From an uncultured Gemmatimonadota bacterium (GTDB lineage: Bacteria; Gemmatimonadota; Gemmatimonadetes; Gemmatimonadales; Gemmatimonadaceae), in contig CAIVZZ010000013.1 of assembly GCA_903910555.1 (NCBI GenBank), positions 1 through 64,000 of the forward strand: a DNA stretch of 64,000 nt, written 5' to 3'. Every line of letters starts with the position of its first letter. Positions within the stretch are counted from its first letter, which is position 1. The translations under genes were made by a program, and so were the position numbers. Shown here piece by piece: positions 34,284 through 35,633 of the stretch. The notes under the pieces are model-generated. The model saw only the letters and a program-made list of their open reading frames with translations, searched no databases and was not told where the DNA came from.

Positions 34284-35633
34284 ATGCTTCGCCTTCGCCA
34301 TCTCGCTGTTGGCTGCCTCGTGCTATTTGCGGCGCCACAGCTGTCCGCCCAACAGCTCCCGACCACGTCGCAGGCGCAGACGCTGCTGCAAACGCGTCCC
34401 GACCTTGTCGCACAGCTCCGGGCCCAGATTCTCAATAGCGGCCTCACACCCGATCAGATCCACGCGCGCCTTCGCGCCGCCGGCTATCCCGAAGACATCC
34501 TCGATCCCTACATCGGCGCGAGCCGCGCGGGACGTGACTCGACCGCCGTGGTTTCACCGTCAGAAGATGTGATCGACGCAGTCTCAGCGCTCGGCCTCAC
34601 AGACTCCGTCAGCACGACGAACCTCCGCGACATGGTCAAACGGCGGAACGCACAGCGCTCGCCGACCGACTCACTGCGCGGGCCCCGCGGTCGTCGTGCG
34701 CTTCCGGATTCGCTGCTCGATCCCGATTCGCTGATGGTGCTCGATTCGCTCTCCGCGCTCGACTCGATCGGGCTGCGCGCGATGTACGATTCGCTCGGAC
34801 GCGTCATCTATGTGCCGCGTCGCCCGGGCCAGGTGGTCGGCCGCCGCAGGGGCGACGTTCGCCCCGATACCGGCGGAACGATCTTCGGCCTCAACGTCTT
34901 CAGCGAGACCACGACGCAGTTCGACGCAAACCTCGCCGGCCCCGTTGACGCGAATTATCGCCTCGGCCCCGGTGACCGTCTCGTCCTGATCATCACCGGC
35001 GACGCGGAGCGCGCGTATACGCTCGATGTCACGCGTGAAGGGTTCATCGTGATTCCCGGCGTCGGGCAGCTGCCGGTCGCGAATCTGACGCTGGGCCAGC
35101 TCGAAGACGTTCTCTATCCGCGACTCGGAAAAGTTTTCTCCGGGCTGCAGCGCGGCGCGAATGCGACGACGCACTTTTACGTGAACGTCTCGAAGCTGCA
35201 CAGCAACCAGGTGTTCGTACTCGGCGACGTCGACGAACCCGGCAGCTATCGCATCTCGAGCGCGGGCACCGCACTCACGGCGCTCTACGCCGCCGGCGGG
35301 CCGACGAAAAATGGCGGCATGCGCACGATCGAGATTCGGCGCGGCGGGAAGACCGTCGACACACTCGATCTCTACGACTACCTCCTGCGCGCAGACGCAT
35401 CGCAGGTCACCGTAGTCGGCGATACGACCGCAGGGGCGTCAGGCGGGCCGCTGTCACGCGAGTTGACGAACGGGTGGAGCTATCAGCTTTCCGAGTGGAT
35501 CGAGTATTTGCCGGGGAAGCAGATGTTCGAGGGGGTTGGGTTGGCGCCGGATGTATACATCAAGGCAGGGGCCCGTGATGCGAGCAGAGGGCTAGATGCG
35601 GCTCTGGCGAAGGCGGTGGCGCTCGCGAAGTGA
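34284..35633 (+). CDS. Chimeric protein: polysaccharide-export SLBB domain fused to an S41-peptidase C-terminus
   Basis: 449 residues. A signal peptide (LAVGCLVLFAAPQLSAQ) is followed by a Ser/Asp-rich region and the PF02563-type export domain (YRLGPGDRLVLIITGD, REGFIVIPGVGQLPVANLTLGQLEDVL). An SLBB domain comes next (VFVLGDVDEPGSYRISSAGTALTALYAAGGPTKNGG ... RTIEIRRGGKTVDTLDLYDYLLRADASQ). Residue 375 onward (VTVVGDTTAGASGGPLSREL, NGWSYQLSEWIEY, FEGVGLAPDV) is the C-terminal end of an S41/tail-specific peptidase, including the VGDTTAGASGG turn that follows the catalytic Ser/Lys region. The expected end of the SLBB protein and the front of the peptidase are missing. The parent protein would be a Wza-like outer-membrane export component. 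Function of the fusion is doubtful. Confidence 0.8.
   Translation: MLRLRHLAVGCLVLFAAPQLSAQQLPTTSQAQTLLQTRPDLVAQLRAQILNSGLTPDQIHARLRAAGYPEDILDPYIGASRAGRDSTAVVSPSEDVIDAVSALGLTDSVSTTNLRDMVKRRNAQRSPTDSLRGPRGRRALPDSLLDPDSLMVLDSLSALDSIGLRAMYDSLGRVIYVPRRPGQVVGRRRGDVRPDTGGTIFGLNVFSETTTQFDANLAGPVDANYRLGPGDRLVLIITGDAERAYTLDVTREGFIVIPGVGQLPVANLTLGQLEDVLYPRLGKVFSGLQRGANATTHFYVNVSKLHSNQVFVLGDVDEPGSYRISSAGTALTALYAAGGPTKNGGMRTIEIRRGGKTVDTLDLYDYLLRADASQVTVVGDTTAGASGGPLSRELTNGWSYQLSEWIEYLPGKQMFEGVGLAPDVYIKAGARDASRGLDAALAKAVALAK

What the first reader, a model, noticed from the sequence alone, without database searches (positions are those of the whole stretch)
34284..35633. Export SLBB protein fused in frame to the end of an S41 peptidase
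The first 374 residues are a Wza/SLBB-type export protein. The last 75 residues, from codon 35406, carry the VGDTTAGASGG, NGWxYxLSxW and GxGxAPDV pattern of the C-terminus of an S41/tail-specific peptidase, with no catalytic Ser/Lys region. Neither parent is complete. The join is exactly in frame, so this is either a deletion that fused two tandem genes or an assembly join.
Basis: partly seen in the sequence, partly recalled or inferred. Interest (0 to 1): 0.65.

Follow-up and report, generated by a model that had tools for sequence, protein, structure and literature searches.

The report
Two broken genes fused in frame
A bacterium of the family Gemmatimonadaceae carries the front part of a sugar-polymer export gene joined to the tail end of a protease gene; neither half is complete, no relative has the same fusion, and it is most likely a leftover of the loss of polymer export rather than a new kind of protein.

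Summary
Residues 1-374 are the N-terminal part of a Wza-like Poly_export/SLBB protein (intact relatives mostly 800-1000 aa). Residues 375-449 are the last ~75 residues of a Tricorn_C1/S41-type peptidase (best relative 73% identical), starting after its presumed catalytic-serine segment. None of 179 family genomes searched has this architecture: SLBB matches mostly stop at residues 373-374, S41 matches mostly start near there. The missing SLBB C-terminus and S41 N-terminus were not found elsewhere in the assembly. Best explanation: a deletion fused two accessory genes between yraN and ftsK, as part of a wider loss of exopolysaccharide export. This is the only Poly_export domain in the genome, no PF02397 sugar transferase is left, and a second SLBB head is cut by an insertion sequence at a contig end. 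An assembly misjoin is possible but less likely: the junction has no repeat and at most about 5 bases of inferred parental overlap, whereas contigs of this assembly break about 141 bases inside a repeated insertion sequence. The product probably has neither parental function. Low interest.

The parts
34284..35633 (+). fused ORF, 449 aa: truncated Poly_export/SLBB protein joined in frame to the C-terminus of an S41 peptidase
34284..35405 (+). head: N-terminal region, Poly_export, first SLBB domain without its end
   Evidence: SLBB relatives of the same genus and family; match ends at residue 373-374
34944..35132 (+). Poly_export domain (PF02563), the only one found in the genome
35208..35402 (+). 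SLBB domain, cut at profile position 66 of 79
35397..35408 (+). junction zone (GCATCGCAGGTC); plausible parental overlap of about 4-5 bases, inferred from relatives
35406..35630 (+). tail: last 75 residues of an S41 peptidase, lacking the presumed catalytic Ser segment
35651..35802 (.). palindromic repeat between the fused ORF and the end of ftsK; dispersed in this genome
33974..34168 (.). short direct and inverted repeats between yraN and the fused ORF
33533..33952 (-). yraN, left neighbour, conserved
35801..38323 (-). ftsK, right neighbour, conserved

Best explanation
A real rearrangement in this lineage removed the 3' part of a Wza-like SLBB export gene, the 5' part of an S41 peptidase gene and whatever lay between them, leaving an in-frame fusion in the variable yraN-ftsK interval. 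It is one scar in a wider loss of exopolysaccharide export. The fused product, if made, would lack the later SLBB repeats and C-terminal end of the exporter and the catalytic serine of the peptidase, so it most likely has neither function. Shown: chimeric composition, no trace of the missing parts in the assembly, absence of the fusion in the relatives searched, absence of other export genes. Inferred: deletion by short-homology recombination, and lack of function.
For: The missing pieces were not found elsewhere in the 3.2 Mb assembly, rated 100% complete (one search found the SLBB C-terminus in 7 relatives, a positive control). The fusion has the only Poly_export domain of the genome, and there is no PF02397 sugar transferase, though same-genus G015 has SLBB, PF02397 and PF02719 genes in a row. 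Contig C22 ends in the head of a second SLBB gene interrupted by an insertion-sequence end, and C13 (window position 1) starts with the other end of such an element, followed by the GTPase gene that lies just beyond the SLBB cluster in G015. Five copies of the IS end lie exactly at contig ends, cut 137-138 bases in, as expected of a de Bruijn assembly with k near 141; the fusion junction shows no repeat and at most about 5 bases shared by the inferred parents, so an overlap-driven misjoin is not expected there. Codon use is native in both halves.
Against: No reads, no second assembly of the species, and no relative with both genes side by side. The second SLBB head is at a contig end, so part of the export cluster could simply be missing from the assembly. 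Multi-k assemblers can carry joins made at smaller k. The tail is intact up to its natural stop, which fits a recent event but also a misjoin.
Confidence: 0.7

Rival explanations
1. Assembly artefact: sequences from two places, or two strains, were joined at 35405.
For: Only one assembly of the species is at hand; other contigs break at repeats; no relative has the fusion.
Against: No repeat or long overlap at the junction; both halves have the genome's codon use; the parental remainders are absent from the assembly instead of lying at contig ends; yraN and ftsK, which lie on the two sides of the junction, are neighbours 0.06-4 kb apart in most relatives compared, so the large-scale order is right.
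Confidence: 0.23
2. A functional new protein: the S41-derived strand completes the truncated SLBB fold or adds a new part, and the protein works in the cell envelope in a role other than an export channel.
For: Open frame intact; coding-like composition to the stop.
Against: No relative conserves it; AlphaFold gave very low confidence after residue 304 (pLDDT 21-38 from residue 311 on, shallow alignment); partner export genes absent.
Confidence: 0.06
3. A conserved SLBB variant with a diverged C-terminal domain that only resembles S41.
For: Some SLBB alignments extend weakly past residue 374 (G015 to 402, G030 to 414).
Against: The tail is 73% identical to a true S41 peptidase C-terminus at E 1e-29 and has no SLBB match of its own.
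Confidence: 0.01

Closest known systems
Poly_export/SLBB outer-membrane polysaccharide export proteins (Wza/EpsE type, PF02563 + PF10531/PF22461)
   Same: Head has Poly_export and the start of the first SLBB domain; 61% identical over residues 23-374 to an 890-aa frame of G033, same family.
   Different: The later SLBB domains (relatives show up to five stretches) and the C-terminal end are missing.
S41 peptidase of the Tricorn_C1 + Peptidase_S41 type (G031, L022:8592-10331)
   Same: Tail is 73% identical to its last ~75 residues, with VGDTT-GASGG, NGWS-QLSEWIEY and EGVGLAPD motifs.
   Different: No Tricorn_C1 domain and no FSSGEDF segment with the presumed catalytic serine.

Membership tests
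Poly_export/SLBB exporter (OPX) | Poly_export domain PF02563 over cut-off | tested here: met
   48.5 bits against cut-off 28
Poly_export/SLBB exporter (OPX) | complete series of SLBB domains and C-terminal part as in relatives | tested here: not met
   one SLBB, cut at profile position 66 of 79; relatives have up to five stretches; remainder not found in the genome
Poly_export/SLBB exporter (OPX) | partner genes for polymer synthesis | tested here: not met
   no PF02397 in the genome; other partner families not searched
Poly_export/SLBB exporter (OPX) | forms an outer-membrane export channel | not testable with these tools
   needs an experiment; structure model too weak
S41 peptidase | Peptidase_S41 domain over cut-off | tested here: not met
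   16.8-19.8 bits against 24, profile 113-164 of 165 only
S41 peptidase | catalytic serine segment | tested here: not met
   the homologue's FSSGEDF lies upstream of the point where the tail begins
S41 peptidase | sequence homology of the tail to an S41 C-terminus | tested here: met
   73% over 74 aa, E 1e-29

The most novel reading that the evidence does not exclude
The fusion is expressed and kept by selection as a small envelope protein, perhaps polysaccharide-binding, in which an S41-derived strand replaces the lost end of the SLBB fold.
Probability: 0.04. Interest if true: 0.45.

Novelty: new member of a known kind. Interest (0 to 1): 0.14.

Why it matters
It matters mainly for annotation: a gene caller would probably name this ORF an export protein, whereas this assembly has no intact Wza-type exporter. 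As a case of export loss through deletion and an insertion sequence it is an ordinary example of gene decay.

Tried and rejected
Looked for the lost halves elsewhere in the genome: not found. Looked for the fusion in 179 family genomes: absent. Looked for S41 or SLBB in the yraN-ftsK interval of 13 relatives: absent. The S41 context in G031 is beside rimP-nusA-infB and a laccase-like gene, not an export cluster, so it gives no tandem ancestor. A repeat at the junction that could explain a misjoin: none found. Structure prediction was too poor to judge the tail. Two literature searches gave nothing useful. The idea that the second SLBB head on contig C22 is the other half of this gene was rejected: it is a paralogous N-terminus (about 50% identical over residues 4-123), not a C-terminus.

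Full report
What is there. The 449-codon ORF at 34284-35633 (+) exists. Pfam assigns Poly_export to residues 221-283 and SLBB to 309-373, with the SLBB_2 profile covered only to position 66 of 79, and an S41 peptidase match to residues 374-425 that covers only the last third of that profile (113-164 of 165) and lies below the curated cut-off. The S41 assignment is nevertheless firm: residues 375-448 are 73% identical (E 1e-29) to the end of a 580-aa frame in G031 that carries Tricorn_C1 and Peptidase_S41 domains over their cut-offs. The tail starts after the FSSGEDF segment that should hold the catalytic serine (the role of that serine is from general knowledge of S41 peptidases).

Where the parents end. 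In the relatives the SLBB proteins, mostly 800-1000 residues long, match the query up to residue 373-374. In the 179 family genomes searched, SLBB matches mostly end at residues 373-374 and S41 matches mostly start at about 367-374; no genome gave a frame that is SLBB on the left and S41 on the right. A few SLBB alignments run on weakly past the border (G015 to 402, G030 to 414); I read this as chance extension, because the residues there align to SLBB sequence while the tail's own best match is S41. Relatives put the border at ...YLLRADAS | QVTVVGDTT..., give or take a residue. Comparing codons of both parent families suggests that the parents shared at most about 5 bases there (CGCA or CGCAG); this is inferred, because the real parents are not available.

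Neighbourhood. yraN and ftsK are neighbours, 0.06 to 4 kb apart, in most relatives that could be compared. The gap content differs: a membrane protein that I read as flippase-like in G002 and G012 (judged by eye; the G002 protein has no Pfam match), an alpha/beta hydrolase in G006, rfb-like sugar-nucleotide genes in G015 (by eye); none of the 13 gaps examined has SLBB or this S41. The interval is therefore a variable slot. Titles of related public records place the family as Gemmatimonadaceae.

Loss of polymer export. The SLBB C-terminus was not found in the assembly with two different queries, one of which found it in seven relatives; the S41 N-terminus was not found either. This ORF holds the only Poly_export domain and the genome has no PF02397 sugar transferase, while G015 has SLBB, PF02397 and PF02719 genes in a row. 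In the window's genome, contig C22 carries tRNA-Val and then a second SLBB head (residues 4-123), interrupted by an insertion-sequence end that runs to the end of the contig. The window's own contig C13 begins with the other end of such an element, followed at 207-1475 by the GTPase gene that lies just beyond the cluster in G015. C22 and C13 are probably linked through this element with the export cluster lost, but the flanks show no matching target duplication, so the link is inferred.

Real or artefact. All five copies of the IS left end lie at contig ends, cut at the same point. With 142-143 bases of the element at the ends of C22 and C13 this looks like a de Bruijn assembly with k near 141. 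Such an assembler breaks at long repeats and would not normally join unrelated sequence over 5 bases. The junction shows no repeat within its surroundings, and codon use is native on both sides. This favours a real deletion, at about 0.7, with an artefact at about 0.23 until reads are checked.

Function. The protein lacks what each parent needs: the later SLBB domains and the C-terminal part for export, the catalytic serine for proteolysis. AlphaFold with 11 sequences gave good confidence only for parts of the N-terminal helical region and the Poly_export region, and very low confidence after residue 304; this is uninformative for the tail, which no other S41 sequence in the alignment covers. 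The likeliest state is a pseudogene or a functionless product.

Noticed in passing
window 1-142: Contig C13 starts with the right end of an IS3-like insertion sequence (type judged by eye); left ends of it lie at the ends of contigs C22, C7 (both ends), C10 and C6.
   Followed up: partly
window 35651-35802: A 150-base imperfect palindrome beside ftsK belongs to a dispersed palindromic repeat family, with about 20 further places in the genome.
   Followed up: partly
window 33974-34168: Direct and inverted repeats (CTTCGCCC type) between yraN and the fused ORF.
   Followed up: no
yraN-ftsK interval, e.g. L075, L076, L079, L081: The slot between yraN and ftsK holds different cargo genes in different relatives.
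   Followed up: partly
L127: A record titled Candidatus Kuenenia stuttgartiensis carries a Gemmatimonad-like SLBB gene (66% in the best segment); probably a wrongly binned or wrongly named contig.
   Followed up: no
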